Below are positions 56,645 to 64,000 of a stretch of 64,000 bases of DNA, one piece after another (the first letter of the stretch is position 1; the number at the start of each line of letters is the position of its first letter). The notes under the pieces are model-generated. The model made no database searches, was not told the DNA's origin, and was given only the letters and a program-made list of their open reading frames with translations. The stretch comes from Neospora caninum Liverpool (Eukaryota; Apicomplexa; Conoidasida; Eucoccidiorida; Sarcocystidae). The stretch is taken from NCBI RefSeq assembly GCF_000208865.1, contig NC_018394.1, positions 3,165,797 through 3,229,796 on the forward strand, read 5' to 3'. Made by a program: the position numbers and the translations under genes.

Positions 56645-59600
56645 ATGTGGTTCGAGATCTGTAGGAGCGATGAGGGTCACCTTCGGGTGCCTACCCTCTG
56701 GAATCACTTCAAACAAAACAATGACTTCCTTAAACTTCTATTCACAGAGGACTTTCTACCCGAGCATCAGAGACTTGGGATAGTTTGGCGCTGCTGTAGG
56801 TTTCTTGCCTCGATCTTCATTCTGTTCGCCATCAATGCGTACACCTACTCGTGGGGGATGGTTGACGTGGCCACTACGCTGCGGAACAGGTACGTGTGCG
56901 ATGCTTTACCACGGCTGTGGATTCGTCTAACGAAACTCTAGATCAGTAACGCTGATACAGGAGAGCCACCGTACGCGAGCATCGTGCGCACTTTAGTTAC
57001 CTACTGTCTTTGTCACGGACAGAACGCATCGCTTTCCTCTCCCCTAGGGAAATCCCCGAACCGCGTACCAGCAGCAAGGAGGCAAGAGTGAAAAGACACG
57101 GGACGCCAATTCCACAAATGAGGTGCACATTTGTAGCTAACAGGGGTTTAATCTTGCTATTCCCAGACGCGGTTTAGCCATCGCTGAACATGTATTATAT
57201 GAGTGATCCCAGGCAACAAGGCAGAATGTGGAAATGTCCGCGCCATGTAGGTGCCAGTAGAGAATCGGATATTTGCGTTTTCGTGAGTGTGACGGAATCG
57301 ATGAGACCGTGAAGAGATGCACTGGTACCGCAGCACAGAGGCTTATCAACATGCACCCAAAAGTTTGAGCTGAGCGCGTGCGCTCCTTAGCCGTCACACA
57401 TCACACAGGGTGGCTATCTAAGGTGCCGCGTGGCATAAAGGACGGGAGTACGACTTATTTTTCTCTCCTCTCCTCCGCAGGACAGACTGCCTGATGACTT
57501 GCACGCAGGAGAACTTCCCTGAAGGAGGCTGCGAGGAAGAGCTCGACAGAACGATCGAGTACCGGGGAAACAAGTACACACGATTCTTTTCTTTCCCAGC
57601 TCCTGAGGGCGTCACCCAGTCGAAGTACTCTGGTGACTACTTTGAGTCGTACACGCGCTGCGAAGACATGGCGCTGGATCCTTCTGGCGCTCTTTGGAGA
57701 CAGTTTGCTTCGCAGTCGTACCGTCAGCTGATCATTCAACAAAATTATACGAAAGTCTGTGAAATCTTCAGAACCTCCGCGGACTTCTGTGACAATCACG
57801 TAAGTCCGCTGGTTTCTGGACAGTCCCAAACGGATCCACACTTTGACACTGGCCGACAATAGCTTCTTAGGCCAGACGTCTCTGGGAACGAGTCCACATG
57901 TACCCTGTAGCAGGCACTTGTGGCGATCGGTCGTGGCTAGTTCGGGCTCTCCGAATGTCCGCGAGTCCAGCGGAACAGCCACAAGCTGCGGAAATCCCTA
58001 AACACATTTTCAAGGTTACTGTGGAGGCGCGGCGGTTGTAAAAACACCTGCTAGACCGTCTCTCAACACGAACGATTTCTCCTCTTCGTGGCTCTGGAGA
58101 GGCGCTCTGACACCGTCAGCCGCAGCCACAGTCCGCCCAGTTGTTCACTTCCGGGTGGTGTCTCTCGAAGAGACGTGGAAGATTGCAGAAAGGAGGGACG
58201 AAGGCAGCCTCTCCTGCGTTTGGAGTAGTCCGAAAAAGGATAGATAACAGGAAACGGACGTCATGCGTAGACCAGCACAGAGGCGCAACGCATCGTCAAC
58301 TGCGAGCCAGCGGCTCTATTTGCACGGCAACGCGGCGCTGACTGACAAACTTAACGAGTACGCTGATACGTGAAGTGGATAGATCCACACCTTGTGGAAA
58401 ACACTGAATCTTCGTGTGCGCAAACTGGTGTTTGGTCACATGCAGGAGGATAGGCTTCACACCTGCTTCCTCGGTTGCCGCCGACCCGAGGACACGGCGG
58501 CGACGGGGTATACCATGGACAATCGTCCACCTTGTGTGTCAGGCGAAGAAACGCGACCGCCTTTACTTTGCATCTACCCGGATGATATCGCCAAGGATAC
58601 GTTTTTTGACAAGATGGTTGGGTCCACATGCATCTACGCTCACGCAATTAGTGCCGACAAGGATTCCAGCGTCTCGTCCGCGTTCGCGCCGCCGATCTGG
58701 TGTTTCGGGGCTCTCCAGCTCTTCGGCGCGATCTTTGCCGCAAATTTCTTGCAGTTGGTCTTTGAGATCCTGCTGCTTCGGGTCCTTGACATGGCGGACA
58801 AATTCATCGAGCAATCCCTTGCTCTCCGAAGTCGCAAATGCCTCTACATCTCGCTGATATCTGTCATCTTGGGTGTCGCAGTGTTCGTAAGTCTCGGAGC
58901 CGTGACGATCCTCCGACGAGTAGGACTCGAGACTGCCTTAGTCATATCGTTTTTCCTCGCCCTCGCCGTCGACCAAGTCAAGTTTTTCCTTGTCCAGCCC
59001 ATCATCTGGTGGGTTCTCTTGCGCCGATGCGGCAAATTGTCACCCGCCGGAGTTCAAGAGTACGATGACGACTATCTCACGCTATTCCAGGCAGAAACGT
59101 CATTGGTAGACACAGCAAGGAAGGCGGTCGGCGACTTCATGTCGACGATTGTTTTCCAACGCGTTCTTCTCAGTTTTCTGCTCGCGTACACCGCCTTCCT
59201 TCTGATCGAATTCCTCCTGTTGAATAACGTGCCAGACTACAACCTCGTCGTTGTTCCCAACATCGACCAAGTAAGGCTTCAGGACCCGCCGTCGGCTAGC
59301 CTTTGGCATTTGCCAAATGCGAGGCTACACCACCAAGCGCAGCTGCGGGACGTGAGCAGCTTGCGGTCGATACCAAGAGAGAGCAGCCTGCTGTGAAAGT
59401 ATTTCCTTGGCCAATAATAAAGGAATTTGCCGGGTGACCCCATTTCAATTCCTCAGGAAACATCTCAGTTGCACGGGTGACCTCCGCCAGTGTTCTGTGG
59501 GACATAACGCAGTGAATCGAGGCGGTGTACTTGAAGACACCACATCCCCCTGCCGAACTTCTGAGAAGCCGAATCTCGGTTTTGTAGAGCCTTTCGCCTG

Positions 59601-62600
59601 CCGGGTACACTTTCAACAGAGGCTCGCCAGAGGCCGCACCATTTGCTCCAGGGTTTTTGCCTGAGTTTGACACACTCTGGACACTCCCAGGCGTGGTGTG
59701 GTTGGCCTTTCGCTTGCGCTCAGGGACGGGTTATAGCAAGGCAAATCGACAATGTCTTCACAGTCATCTTCGCATTGGAGGTACTAGGGAAGTTCGTTGG
59801 GTACGGCCTAATATATCTGAAAGACCCTATCGAATCCTTCGATACTCTTGTCGTAATGACGACCTTCACCTTGCTCATTTTGGGCTTCTACGTATCTGGA
59901 ATCGGTGAGTCTTTCACGAGGGTTTCAAGTTTCCGCGAACGCGAGAGCAACGGCTCGTTACTTGCCGCCACCTCGCGTGTCTGGTTGACACAAACTCGTT
60001 TGGAGCTGGACTGTGTCCCTTTTCTTCCTCTCTGACCAGTGAAACTGTAGCCGTGTATCACCTTGCCCATTCTTTAGAGTTTTTGGTTAATTGCAGCATG
60101 AAAACGAGATGAGCGAAAATGTCAGAACAGAAGGTTCTCTCGGCGAACGTGTAGCTCATTCGTTTTTTCTCTCTGAGCTCGAAGCTTACTGCCGTGCGCA
60201 AGTCGCCATGTCTGTTTCTGCAGGTCTGCTGCGTATTCTTCGACTGCTCAGTGCGTTAGCGTTGCTGCACAAGTACCCTGACTCCAGAGAGCGACGCCCC
60301 GAGTGGTCTGCAAACAATTCCTCGAAGTTGGAAAAGGCCTCTTCGATAGTCGAAGGCCTGCTGACCAACGTGCATATTCCCAAGTACTTCAAGACGGAGC
60401 TTGACTGGGTCTGGGATTCCATTCTTTCCAACAAAGTCTACGACACTCATGTCGAAAACGAAGAGGAAGAAGAGGATCAGGCGACAGAGGCAAGTTTTAG
60501 GCTCTCTCTTTTTACCGAGAAGTCCGTTCAAAAATGTGCGCCTATCCAATACCTGATCGCTTCGATAGAACAGCAGTGCCATCCAAGACGCTAACCTACG
60601 TCCCCGGGCAGAGGTACAAGCATGTGTGCGGCAGCCTACCCTGTACGCGTTTGCTCACGATCTCACCGTTTGCACGCTGCGGATTTCACTCACCACCTTG
60701 GTGCTTGCTTGGGGGTCTGCGTGTTCCGCGTACGCCGCGCCATCACAACTGGAAAAAACGGCAGAGACGTAGCTGTACAAACGAACCTTCGCTCTCGAGC
60801 AGCATGCGCGAAAGCTGTTGCTGGCCCTTTACCCTGGAAAAGCTACCCTAGTGGGAACGTTTACAACGCTACTCTCGACGTATCTATACTGACTTCCGGC
60901 CTCATGCCTTTTCTCTCAGACCATCATTGCCAGCGCCGACGCCTCCCGCAAGACGCAAGCAGCCGTGCGCGCGTCTCGGGCTCAGTCGCGGGCTTCCAAA
61001 GTTCCTCACGGCTCGTCAAGCATGGTGATCGGCAGCACGAACGGCCGCATTTCCGGTCAAATGTTGGAGAATTTGAGGGAACCGGACCCAAGAATGATGG
61101 ACGCTGCACTGTACCGGTCTGACACGCGCAACCTCGATCCCCTAAGTAAGGTTCTTTCTTAACATGCTTTCCTCGAGCGCAACCGAGGGTGTCCGCATTC
61201 TCGCAGTACCCAACCGAGCCTCTCTTTTCATATGTCCTGCACTTCAAAACGAATGCCGACTGGGTGTAAAATCACCACATTTGTCCCGTCCAGGAGTACA
61301 GAGAGGCAAACGTCTGCCAGTGCCGGACTGGTTCTTTACCTCTACTAAACCTACAGTGTTAGTGGATGCAACTTCCAGAGATGCTCTCTCGAAGAAACCG
61401 CTTTCCTAGTTTCCTATGAAGCAACCGGTTTCCTAGTTTCCTACAGCGGATATTAGACTTGCCCGGAGACGAGGGGGTAGTCGTTTCCCGCGGATGCGCG
61501 ATGTGCTTGTTGGCGGCTTTCCACGGGTGTGAGGCGCAGAGTCTACGCAGCGTTGTTCCCTGACATGCATTCCACGTTGCTCTCCCGTGCAGCTGCCACT
61601 GTTGGTGGAATGAAAAGCGCACCCTCAATGTTCACAAAGGGGAGCAAATCAAGCACCATGATGGGTTCCTCGGCCTCTAAGTCCTTTCGGACAGAACGAA
61701 ACAAAAAGTCTATTGACATTCTCGCAGTTCTTTATCAGGCGTCACAAATCACGGGTAAGCAGGGACACCAGACCGCACGGAGCACCCCTGGCTTTTGACT
61801 TGCACTCTCGAAGCTGTCAGATTCTTCTGACGCTTTTACCTCTGGGCGTGGACGTCGTGGACCTCAGCGAGTGTACGAACAGCTTGGACTCATTCGCATT
61901 TTTCAGAGGTTCAGCGATGCAAATCTAAGCTTGCCCAAAGCGTGATTCAATCTGCATCTTCGTATGAAATATCAACCTATTCTTTCGCTCAGTAATGGAC
62001 AAAGACAGTTGACTCCCATGCAGAGGAAACGGGATTGATGTAGACTCTATAGTGAAATGAGAAAGCGTATGCCCATGACTTGTGCCTCACGGGGAAGACG
62101 AAATAAAGACGTGGGTTTTTCCACCGAAGCGGCTCGGTGAGGAGACACCACGCGGCCCACATTTCGTTGATGCAGTCTGAAGTCAAGCTGTCTGTGCCGC
62201 GCCTTGTTTGCCGCTGATCGCTGTGTCTTTCGAAAGCTCTGAGGTGACGGGTGTTGTTGTTTCCCCCAGGTCTTCAGGGAGGTGTCTGGGTATTTGTTGC
62301 TATCCTGTTTTATGCATGCGAACAGGGGCGGAGCAGGAGCAAGTAAACGAGGCCATGCGGCCGTTCGACGAATGGCAGTGGGACGCACTGCATGCCAGCG
62401 ACGTGTGCGACATGAATCTCCTCCCTGTCGTTTTCGTCCGGGCAATTGCGACCTTCCCGACGATCATGACGAAGTTAGTTAAGACTCAAAAAAACAAAAC
62501 TACGGCTTATCCCCGTCTGCTAACGTCCACATGCGCTCTATTCTCAATCCAGCATGCGCCTCGGAATTGTCGAGGGAACGGGCCGAGATCAGTGCCTGTA

Positions 62601-64000
62601 TAGACTGGGCTACAGGCGACAAGCCTTCTAACTAGTGCGTGGAAGACTCTAGGGTATCACTGCAATCACGTCACCAGTGGCGACCAGCTTCCCTTCGCAC
62701 CCCGTTCTATTTGTGCACTGGCGAGATGTGGAAAACCTGATCCAAACCCTCTGATTTTTTTCACAAGTTTTGGCCGTGGGAAACCACTCTCTGAGCGCCT
62801 CTCCGCGAGTTTAGGCTTTTGTGCAGACCCAAAGTTTCAGCTGGAGTAACTCGCGGGGGCAGTTCCCTTACTGAGTCAAATTTGAAGGGCATAATAGAGT
62901 CCGTAGTCCGTGAAAGAAGAATTCTTTTGCCTTCTATAGAGGCGTCGCGCTATAAAACACGAATTCGAAATTCGGCATAAGTCTTGCGATCTCGTAAACG
63001 AGACTGTCGCTTTGGTTCATGCCTCTGCAGATTCAACTTCGACTTGGACCGCCTCTTCGATTTCCTGAAAGTCGTTCAAACGTCATTCCAGAAAAATGTG
63101 AAGTTTCACTGCGCAGCACACACTGCCGACATGATCCAAGCCATGCACTATTTCCTCACGATCGGCAAGCTCGGAACGCTGCTAAGTGAGCCCAGGACGA
63201 AAAAGCCATAGGCACTAGCTTTAGTGGCTGCAGCTGCCAACATGATACGGCTTCAGATTCATAGAGGAAGGCAGAAGTCGCGTCAAAACACCTGACACTC
63301 TCTTGCCCCTCTTTTACCTTCAGTGCCGTTGAAGCCGTATGTCCCAGGTGCGTTCTGTGCACCTGGAGCCTGCTGTGGGCCAGCAGCGCTCGTTGGGAGG
63401 TCAAACGAAAGAGGCGCCCGGAAACGCACCGCGCGCCCAGCCGCTTTCTGCTCCCTTTTTACCCACCTGTTTATTTTGCCCACGCAGGCGAATACGATGT
63501 TTTCTTGTGTCATTTCTGCGCCCTGGTTTGCCACTTTGGCCATCCGGGCGTGTCCAACACATTTCTGGTGAAGTCGCGTCACCCACGTGCTATTCGGTAC
63601 GACGACGAATCAGTGAACGAGAATTATGTGGCGTCGACAATTTCGTGCTTGGTGGCACGTGATGAGTACAACTTCTTTGGTAAGCACCGCACGGGGGCCA
63701 GAAAGGGGTTCGAAGAGCACTCAATCTTCTCTCTTTTGGGACGTGTGCATGACGTGCAAGAGCGTATACACCTGGTCTTGACAGTGGACCATCACACCTT
63801 GCCCCCCACCAACGTTTCTGTACTGCCTATGCCACTGAGGCTGTCTCAGACCTTGCGGCGTAGACCATCCACTTTAGTTTTTTTTGACCGATTCGAGGCA
63901 CTGCACGAAAGCAGCTGGCAGCTCTCATCGTAGGGGCATCCACTTTAGTTTTTTTTGACCGATTCGAGGCACTGCACGAAAGCAGCTGGCAGCTCTCATC
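56645..64000 (+). CDS. Voltage-sensor-like membrane protein fused to cyclic nucleotide phosphodiesterase, 3' end outside the window
   Basis: Eleven exons join in phase: 56645-56889, 57481-57799, 58446-59270, 59724-59904, 60224-60489, 60920-61145, 61593-61754, 62326-62473, 63031-63185, 63324-63347 (24 bases) and 63488-63679; coding continues past the window. Exon 1 has one membrane segment, exon 2 a cysteine-containing outer loop. Exon 3 has three membrane segments and an S1-like helix (VLLSFLLAYTAFLLIEFLLL). Exon 4 gives S2 (FTVIFALEVLGKFVGYG) and S3 (FDTLVVMTTFTLLILGF). Exon 5 gives S4-like GLLRILRLLSALALLHK. No pore helix follows; the chain turns cytosolic and acidic. Exons 8-11 carry the PDEase domain: W-WDALHASD, FDFLKVVQ, FHCAAHTADMIQAMHYFL and a GHPGVSNTFLVKS block with YDDESVNENY. 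The intron 60490-60919 begins with GC. The role inferred is membrane-linked control of cAMP or cGMP. The first ATG may not be the true start. Confidence 0.85.
61396..61443. repeat. Short direct repeat in an intron
   Basis: Two copies of an approximately 21-base unit (aaccg, one variable base, tttcctagtttccta) lie at 61396-61416 and 61423-61443, within the intron before phosphodiesterase exon 7. It has no evident function. Confidence 0.6.
63866..64000. repeat. Tandem direct repeat, 64-base copies at a 71-base period
   Basis: The block beginning catccactttag and ending gctctcatc occurs at 63866-63929 and again, apparently without change, at 63937-64000, separated by gtagggg. It sits in the intron after the last phosphodiesterase exon seen and runs to the window edge, so more copies may follow. 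Confidence 0.9.

What the first reader, a model, noticed from the sequence alone, without database searches (positions are those of the whole stretch)
59180..63679. Voltage-sensor-like S1-S4 module fused to a phosphodiesterase domain
Seen: four consecutive hydrophobic helices with S1-S4 character, the fourth with Arg at three-residue spacing (RILR) and a later HK. They are followed not by a pore but by a cytosolic linker and a PDEase domain. Known: voltage-sensing phosphatases (Ci-VSP/TPTE) use the same logic with a lipid phosphatase. Inference: this may be a voltage- or ion-responsive cyclic nucleotide hydrolase controlling cAMP/cGMP signals, upstream of egress or gametogenesis pathways. The extra N-terminal membrane segments and Cys-rich loop recall polycystin-type proteins, which makes the combination rarer.
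Basis: partly seen in the sequence, partly recalled or inferred. Interest (0 to 1): 0.85.

Follow-up and report, generated by a model that had tools for sequence, protein, structure and literature searches.

The report
Voltage-sensor fused to dead phosphodiesterase
A gene of the cattle and dog parasite Neospora caninum joins the voltage-sensing half of an ion channel, without its pore, to a cyclic-nucleotide phosphodiesterase domain whose catalytic metal site has been replaced, so it is probably a conserved membrane-bound receptor or scaffold rather than the cAMP/cGMP-degrading enzyme it is annotated as.

Summary
The fusion is real. One 12-exon gene (window 56645 to about 65259, past the window's right end) encodes 1064 aa: a membrane helix, a Cys-rich loop, three more helices, an S1-S4 module and a PDEase_I domain. 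S1-S4 matches only the sensor half of Ion_trans (profile 3-110 of 241); no pore follows. The combination is in print for Toxoplasma TgPDE4 and TgPDE16; this gene is inferred to be the TgPDE16 orthologue. The 'hydrolase' inference is unlikely. The metal motif HDxxH reads CHFGH (CHYGH in Cystoisospora) and the purine-clamp Gln reads His in all three genera seen, although this domain is the best-conserved part (91% identity). The 17 other N. caninum PDE loci found keep HD; the paralogue (TgPDE4 type) is disabled by different substitutions but has four S4 arginines at three-residue spacing. A metagenomic relative combines a sensor with intact PDE motifs. Best reading: a sensor-PDE family whose two coccidian copies became pseudoenzymes, perhaps membrane cyclic-nucleotide receptors or partners of active PDEs in intestinal stages. 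Voltage sensing, nucleotide binding and inactivity are untested. This copy's S4 keeps two arginines, so voltage sensitivity is doubtful. Polycystin kinship found no support.

The parts
56645..56889 (+). Exon 1: start codon MWF..., first membrane helix TM1 (about 56777-56845)
   Evidence: Joins exon 2 in frame; N-terminus similar to P0015-P0017 (BLASTP E 9.5e-7 to 2.2e-6 against three subjects; tblastn E 0.017 against two stretches). The public model P0001 starts 71 residues later, at M72.
57481..57799 (+). Exon 2: Cys-rich loop, first part
   Evidence: nine loop cysteines plus C274 at the TM2 border invariant in 4 of 4 rows of A6 (two of each paralogue).
58446..59270 (+). Exon 3: end of the Cys-rich loop, TM2 (58704-58790), TM3 (58836-58916), TM4 (58935-59018), S1 (59154-59228)
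   Evidence: hydropathy (TM4 2.08).
59724..59904 (+). Exon 4: S2 with F479 and E482, S3 with D503 (charge-transfer-centre residues)
   Evidence: Ion_trans match; D472, F479, E482, D503 invariant in 6 of 6 rows of A5.
60224..60489 (+). Exon 5: S4 (GLLRILRLLSALALLHK; R527, R530, H539, K540) and a helical linker motif (60319-60444); GC-AG donor
   Evidence: same order and register in metagenomic P0025.
60920..61754 (+). Exons 6 and 7 (60920-61145, 61593-61754): cytosolic linker, no pore helices
   Evidence: Highest 19-residue Kyte-Doolittle mean in residues 542-742 is 0.36; Ion_trans match stops at profile position 110 of 241.
62326..62473 (+). Exon 8: start of the PDE-fold region (residues 742-790)
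63031..63185 (+). Exon 9: PDEase_I with H817 and H821 (FHCAAHTAD)
63488..63679 (+). Exon 10: degenerate metal motif CHFGH (63529-63543) in place of HDxxH
63680..64000 (+). Intron 10, continuing beyond the window. Exons 11 and 12 lie in L010 308-487 and 964-1259 (C9:3230104-3230283 and 3230760-3231055) and carry D967 (kept) and H1018 (invariant Gln replaced)

Best explanation
The gene encodes a member of a small coccidian family (inferred TgPDE16 orthologue, paralogous to TgPDE4): TM1, Cys-rich loop, TM2-TM4, a pore-less S1-S4 voltage-sensor-type domain, a helical linker and a class I PDE-fold domain that has lost its bimetal centre. Most likely the PDE fold no longer hydrolyses cAMP/cGMP but is kept as a cyclic-nucleotide-binding or protein-binding module (receptor, or competitor/partner of active PDEs), held at a membrane and possibly tuned by membrane state through S4 and the linker, in the intestinal (merogony/sexual) stages. 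Shown: domain order in one splice-consistent gene, sensor half without pore, conserved charge-transfer residues, reduced S4, replacement of two metal ligands and the clamp Gln, strong conservation of the PDE part. Inferred: catalytic inactivity, ligand or partner binding, coupling between sensor and PDE fold, stage of action in Neospora.
For: Splice-consistent 12-exon model; proteins with both domains in three genera. Sensor: Ion_trans E 1.1e-8, profile 3-110 of 241; PDB profile hits Nav/Cav, Hv1 and VSP entries (best 60 of 104 and of 152 shown). F479, E482, D503 and R530 invariant in 6 of 6 rows. PDE: E 6.7e-47; Foldseek TMt 0.82-0.89 for 49 of the 50 listed chains, all PDE4, 0.68 for one (PDE part block pLDDT 45-90). 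Metal site: alignment to PDE4D places C857-H858 at the HD pair and H1018 at the invariant Gln; same in 3 of 3 genera. Control: HD kept at 17 of 17 other N. caninum PDE loci; of 32 proteins returned by the three searches 26 have HDxxH and the 6 without are the six coccidian sensor-PDEs. Neospora-Cystoisospora identity: PDE 294/322, TM2-TM4 101/158. Zinc ligands two His and two Asp, and cAMP bound in D201N PDE4D: PMC13095499 (passages). PDE4D5-D556A, changed at a metal-binding residue, has dramatically reduced activity (printed as '<99% reduction') and acts dominant-negatively: PMC7460819 (passages).
Against: No activity, binding or gating was measured. H821, C857, H858 and D967 could still hold one zinc, so residual or altered chemistry is not excluded. 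The Q-to-H change also weakens the case for nucleotide binding. PMC7720076 predicts TgPDE16 as cAMP-specific and excepts only TgPDE4 and TgPDE14 from having most signature residues; its Fig. S1 was not seen, nor the TgPDE16 sequence by name. S4 keeps two arginines only. The sensor fold was not confirmed by structure prediction. Only three orthologues were seen, one (Hammondia) lacking everything before S2. Expression in Neospora was not looked up.
Confidence: 0.62

Rival explanations
1. One reading: a voltage-gated, active cAMP/cGMP phosphodiesterase, working like a voltage-sensing phosphatase.
For: Same order of parts; metagenomic P0025 has a sensor with three S4 arginines at three-residue spacing and intact PDE motifs, so active sensor-PDEs may exist elsewhere.
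Against: In this protein HD is CH and the clamp Gln is His in three genera; S4 has fewer charges than its relatives.
Confidence: 0.1
2. Pseudoenzyme tethered by an inert membrane anchor: the S1-S4 module is a relic without voltage sensing, and the PDE fold acts as scaffold or dominant-negative partner of active PDEs.
For: S4 positions 533 and 536 are neutral in 3 of 3 genera; the PDE part is far better conserved than the membrane part; dominant-negative precedent PMC7460819 (passages).
Against: F479, E482, D503, R527, R530, H539 and K540 are invariant in three genera and the paralogue has four S4 arginines, so the sensor is not simply decaying.
Confidence: 0.3
3. The S1-S4 module is a proton or cation permeation pathway (Hv1-like) whose activity is set by nucleotide binding to the PDE fold.
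For: Pore-less S1-S4; an acidic S1 residue (Glu in Neospora, Asp in the other five rows); entry 3wkv (listed as 'Ion channel', Hv1 as I recall) matched by the family profile at 3.1e-8.
Against: The Hv1 S4 motif (recalled: WRxxR with a following N) is absent; the nearest matches are Nav/Cav sensors.
Confidence: 0.08
4. Ordinary polycystin or channel relative with a fused PDE.
Against: No PKD_channel match, no PDB match for the N-terminal region, no pore half.
Confidence: 0.04

Closest known systems
Toxoplasma gondii TgPDE16 (TGGT1_258508)
   Same: Orthologue by elimination: the other clade B copy, TgPDE4, fits P0015 (T. gondii, 1037 aa; 118 kDa), and the Hammondia protein P0003 (609 aa) has the size given for TgPDE16 (68 kDa) and the same CHFGH and S4.
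   Different: [quoted passage not shown] the full gene here is 1064 aa with eight predicted membrane helices and a degenerate metal site. The TgPDE16 sequence itself was not seen by name.
Toxoplasma gondii TgPDE4 (TGGT1_229405)
   Same: Same architecture from MWF start to PDE (P0015); PDE also degenerate.
   Different: S4 has four arginines at three-residue spacing (RLVRLYRLHR); its PDE lost other residues (H to R, H to W, D to N) and keeps D of HD and the clamp Gln.
Ci-VSP / TPTE voltage-sensing phosphatases
   Same: Pore-less S1-S4 followed by a cytosolic enzyme-fold domain (recalled); 4g7v 'Voltage-sensor containing phosphatase' matched by the family profile at 1.6e-7.
   Different: Effector is a class I PDE fold, not a PTEN-like phosphatase; four extra N-terminal helices; sensor nearer Nav/Cav.
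Metagenomic sensor-PDE P0025 (JGI)
   Same: S1-S4, linker and PDE in the same order; the coccidian sensor-plus-linker profile scores 59.4 bits against 6.8 for the best of 300 shuffles.
   Different: No N-terminal TM1-TM4 in the sequence held; PDE motifs intact (HDMGH, Gln kept); organism unknown; linker alone scores only 6.2 bits against 4.9 for the best shuffle.
Human PDE4/PDE1 catalytic domains
   Same: Fold (Foldseek to PDE4, TMt up to 0.89) and alignable sequence.
   Different: HD pair and clamp Gln replaced; no UCR or calmodulin region recognised.

Membership tests
Class I cyclic nucleotide phosphodiesterase (active enzyme) | PDEase_I fold/sequence | tested here: met
   E 6.7e-47; Foldseek to PDE4
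Class I cyclic nucleotide phosphodiesterase (active enzyme) | H-D-[LIVMFY]-x-H-x-[AG]-x(2)-[NQ]-x-[LIVMFY] signature (given in PMC10865986) | tested here: not met
   CHFGHPGVSNTF. Four HD-keeping relatives (P0018, P0019, P0021, P0028) also miss the full signature at other positions, so the HD pair is the telling part.
Class I cyclic nucleotide phosphodiesterase (active enzyme) | four zinc ligands H, H, D, D | tested here: not met
   H821, C857, H858, D967
Class I cyclic nucleotide phosphodiesterase (active enzyme) | invariant purine-clamp Gln | tested here: not met
   H1018 in 3 of 3 genera
Class I cyclic nucleotide phosphodiesterase (active enzyme) | hydrolysis of cAMP or cGMP | not testable with these tools
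   needs an enzyme assay
Voltage-sensor domain (Ion_trans S1-S4) | sequence match to S1-S4 | tested here: met
   Ion_trans 3-110 of 241, E 1.1e-8; PDB profile
Voltage-sensor domain (Ion_trans S1-S4) | charge-transfer centre (aromatic and acid in S2, acid in S3; recalled definition) | tested here: met
   F479, E482, D503 invariant in 6 of 6 rows
Voltage-sensor domain (Ion_trans S1-S4) | S4 with several Arg/Lys at every third position | tested here: inconclusive
   R527, R530, then S533, A536, H539-K540; paralogue has four Arg
Voltage-sensor domain (Ion_trans S1-S4) | four-helix bundle | tested here: inconclusive
   helices predicted but block pLDDT 41-57
Voltage-gated cation channel | S5-P-S6 pore after S4 | tested here: not met
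   match ends at S4; highest hydropathy of residues 542-742 is 0.36
Voltage-sensing phosphatase | PTEN-like phosphatase domain | tested here: not met
   PDEase_I instead
Polycystin (PKD_channel) | PKD_channel domain match | tested here: not met
   no match; no PDB match

The most novel reading that the evidence does not exclude
A family of voltage-sensing phosphodiesterases exists outside coccidia (active copies such as P0025) and was inherited by coccidia, where it split into two pseudoenzymes: one with a full four-arginine sensor (TgPDE4 type) and one with a reduced sensor (this gene), which convert membrane state and cyclic-nucleotide occupancy into a protein-binding signal during the parasite's intestinal sexual phase.
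Probability: 0.25. Interest if true: 0.85.

Novelty: new variant of a known kind. Interest (0 to 1): 0.62.

Why it matters
Electrical control of an intracellular effector without a channel pore is known to me mainly from voltage-sensing phosphatases and a few fusions (recalled). A sensor joined to a cyclic-nucleotide PDE would link membrane potential directly to cAMP/cGMP. In coccidia it would mean that two of the 18 annotated PDEs of Toxoplasma are probably not enzymes, which changes how PDE knock-out, inhibitor and substrate-prediction work is read, and it makes specific tests possible: gating currents from the TgPDE4-type sensor, nucleotide binding without hydrolysis from both PDE folds.

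Tried and rejected
Polycystin kinship: Pfam and a PDB profile of the N-terminal region gave nothing. Structure prediction with 3 orthologues was useless (mean pLDDT 31.8); with 9 rows the PDE part folded but the sensor stayed under 60, so the fold search of that model speaks for the PDE part only. Grouping the metagenomic sensor-PDE with the coccidian clade by a PDE tree failed to resolve (31 rows, P0005 and P0017 left out): coccidian PDE4 and PDE16 join at 95/89, but the tool warns that long branches meet there, and P0025 is unplaced. Sequencing error as an explanation of the degenerate motif rejected: three genera agree. Change of N to C in the YHN motif was not counted as a defect because P0019, an algal PDE with HD, also has C there. 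NCBIfam gave nothing of use. Literature: searches (15 of 55 listed; none; 15 of 48 listed; 15 of 23 listed; none, five phrases such as 'voltage-sensing phosphodiesterase') showed no paper on such a protein; one search gave three papers that name TgPDE4 or TgPDE16, all read in passages (one section of two of them in full or in part). PMC9619220 had no passage on either. Protein searches were capped: about 8,000 candidates scored, and 1,462, so other sensor-PDEs may exist unseen.
Full report
Where it is. The window is part of contig C9 (4,923,984 bases) of a 57.5 Mb, 14-contig genome. The best protein hit for the gene is 'putative cAMP-specific phosphodiesterase [Neospora caninum Liverpool]' with a longest contig of exactly that length (P0001), so the organism is N. 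caninum.

The gene. Twelve exons fit without a frame break: eleven introns, ten GT-AG and one GC-AG (donor after 60489). The protein has 1064 residues; exons 11 and 12 lie beyond the window in L010. P0001 agrees except that it starts at M72 (losing TM1) and reads 12 codons into the GC-AG intron; P0002 and P0003 lack those 12 residues, and the N-terminus of exon 1 is similar to the paralogues P0015-P0017 (BLASTP E 9.5e-7 to 2.2e-6 against three subjects only; tblastn E 0.017 against two genome stretches), so the model here is probably the better one. No transcript was available.

Domains. Pfam finds two: Ion_trans, residues 424-539, profile 3-110 of 241, E 1.1e-8; PDEase_I, 816-1042, E 6.7e-47. 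The Ion_trans match ends after S4, and the highest 19-residue hydropathy mean between residues 542 and 742 is 0.36 (S4 itself 1.33, TM4 2.08), so there is no pore. A whole-genome search for Ion_trans gave nine exon matches, this gene being one.

The sensor. A profile of three orthologues matches Nav and Cav sensors in the PDB (best 1.8e-12, sodium channel type 10). A profile of six family members matches Cav3.3 at 3.3e-23, entry 3wkv ('Ion channel'; Hv1 as I recall) at 3.1e-8 and the voltage-sensor phosphatase entry 4g7v at 1.6e-7 (whole-chain E-values, summed over several stretches in four-domain channels). F479 and E482 in S2 and D503 in S3, the positions of the charge-transfer centre (definition recalled), and R530 in S4 are invariant in 6 of 6 rows. 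S4 reads R527, R530, S533, A536, H539-K540, identical in Neospora, Hammondia and Cystoisospora. The Toxoplasma paralogue reads MRLVRLYRLHR, four arginines at three-residue spacing, and metagenomic P0025 has three. The family thus looks like a real sensor family, but this copy has a reduced S4.

The PDE fold. Alignment to PDE4D puts C857-H858 on the HD pair and H1018 on the invariant glutamine; H817, H821, H861 and D967 are kept. A review gives the zinc ligands of PDE4B as two His and two Asp (PMC13095499, passages). These substitutions are shared by 3 of 3 genera (the residue after CH is F, F and Y). As a control I examined the motif at the 19 N. caninum PDE loci into which I grouped the 53 exon matches (a review says 18 PDEs): 17 have HD (16 read directly; one, on C8, ends an exon with CHDI and resumes with AHPG), this gene has CHFGH and its paralogue WDYQH. 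Of 32 proteins returned by three searches, 26 have HDxxH; the six without are the coccidian members of this family. The fold is kept: of the 50 Foldseek rows listed, all PDE4, 49 have TMt 0.82-0.89 and one 0.68; block pLDDT of that part is 45-90, lowest at residues 811-830 of P0001, 81 at the motif.

Selection. Between Neospora and Cystoisospora the PDE part is 294/322 identical (91.3%), the linker 156/200, S1-S4 92/121, TM2-TM4 101/158 and the loop 112/180. A domain that has lost its metal site yet is the best-conserved part is not a dying gene. In the PDE tree the two coccidian groups join at 95/89 support, each on a long stem (1.15 and 1.17) with short branches inside; the tool warns of long branches meeting.

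Paralogue and relatives. A protein search with the paralogue's PDE exons returned Toxoplasma P0015, Besnoitia P0016 and Neospora P0017, all with PDEase_I plus Ion_trans, and P0025 from a JGI metagenome (729 aa, ten member sequences) with both domains and intact YHN..HAAD, HDMGH, AADIAN and Gln. A profile of the coccidian sensor-plus-linker regions (six rows) scores P0025 at 59.4 bits, against 6.8 for the best of 300 shuffled controls; the sensor alone gives 38.4 (best shuffle 8.3) and the linker alone only 6.2 (best shuffle 4.9), so the linker link is suggestive and part of the sensor score may be general kinship of sensors. P0020 (ENA, a fragment from S4 on) scores 13.4; P0018 nothing above shuffles. 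The PDE4-type copy lost the H164, H200 and D318 equivalents but keeps D201 and Gln; this copy lost H200, D201 and Gln but keeps H164 and D318 (PDE4D2 numbers partly recalled). The losses differ and are at least partly independent.

Literature. [quoted passage not shown] it predicts TgPDE4 and TgPDE16 as cAMP-specific. PMC8809380 (passages) reports portions of pfam00520 in TgPDE4 and TgPDE16. PMC10865986 (section 3 part 1 and passages) places both in clade B with human PDE1 and free-living alveolates, expressed only in cat stages. The word 'voltage' occurs in none of the three, and the passages I saw do not mention loss of the TgPDE16 metal site. Searches listed no account of a voltage-sensing phosphodiesterase; only the top rows were seen and the library lacks most subscription papers.

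Mechanism. The most likely working is a membrane-bound pseudo-PDE: D201N PDE4D was crystallised with cAMP bound (PMC13095499, passages), and a metal-site mutant of PDE4D5 with dramatically reduced activity acts by displacing the active enzyme from partners (PMC7460819, passages). Either could be the retained function. Whether S4 movement is coupled to it is open; my own estimate is about one in three for real voltage responsiveness of this copy and higher for the TgPDE4 type.

Verdict.

Noticed in passing
window 60490-60525: GC-AG intron donor; the public model P0001 reads 12 codons (ASFRLSLFTEKS) into this intron, absent from orthologues.
   Followed up: yes
window 63866-64000: A perfect 71-base tandem duplication (1.9 copies, 100% match) in an intron of this gene at the window's right edge.
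   Followed up: no
P0025 (JGI metagenome protein, 729 aa): A sensor-PDE with intact catalytic motifs and three S4 arginines: a candidate for an actual voltage-gated phosphodiesterase in an unknown organism.
   Followed up: partly
G000:C10:207878-209830: Paralogue (TgPDE4 type): PDE with FHNAIR, WDYQH and NAANYS, i.e. different metal ligands lost than in this gene.
   Followed up: yes
window 57482-58703; P0015, P0016: Nine loop cysteines plus one at the TM2 border are invariant in both paralogues (4 rows), yet no library searched recognises the loop: an unassigned ectodomain.
   Followed up: partly
P0002 residues 829-840: 12-residue insertion in the PDE of the Cystoisospora model, absent from the other two orthologues; possibly a splice annotation error.
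   Followed up: no
G000:C8:1014710-1020414: Four Ion_trans matches in tandem: probably a four-domain Cav/Nav-like channel gene in N. caninum.
   Followed up: no
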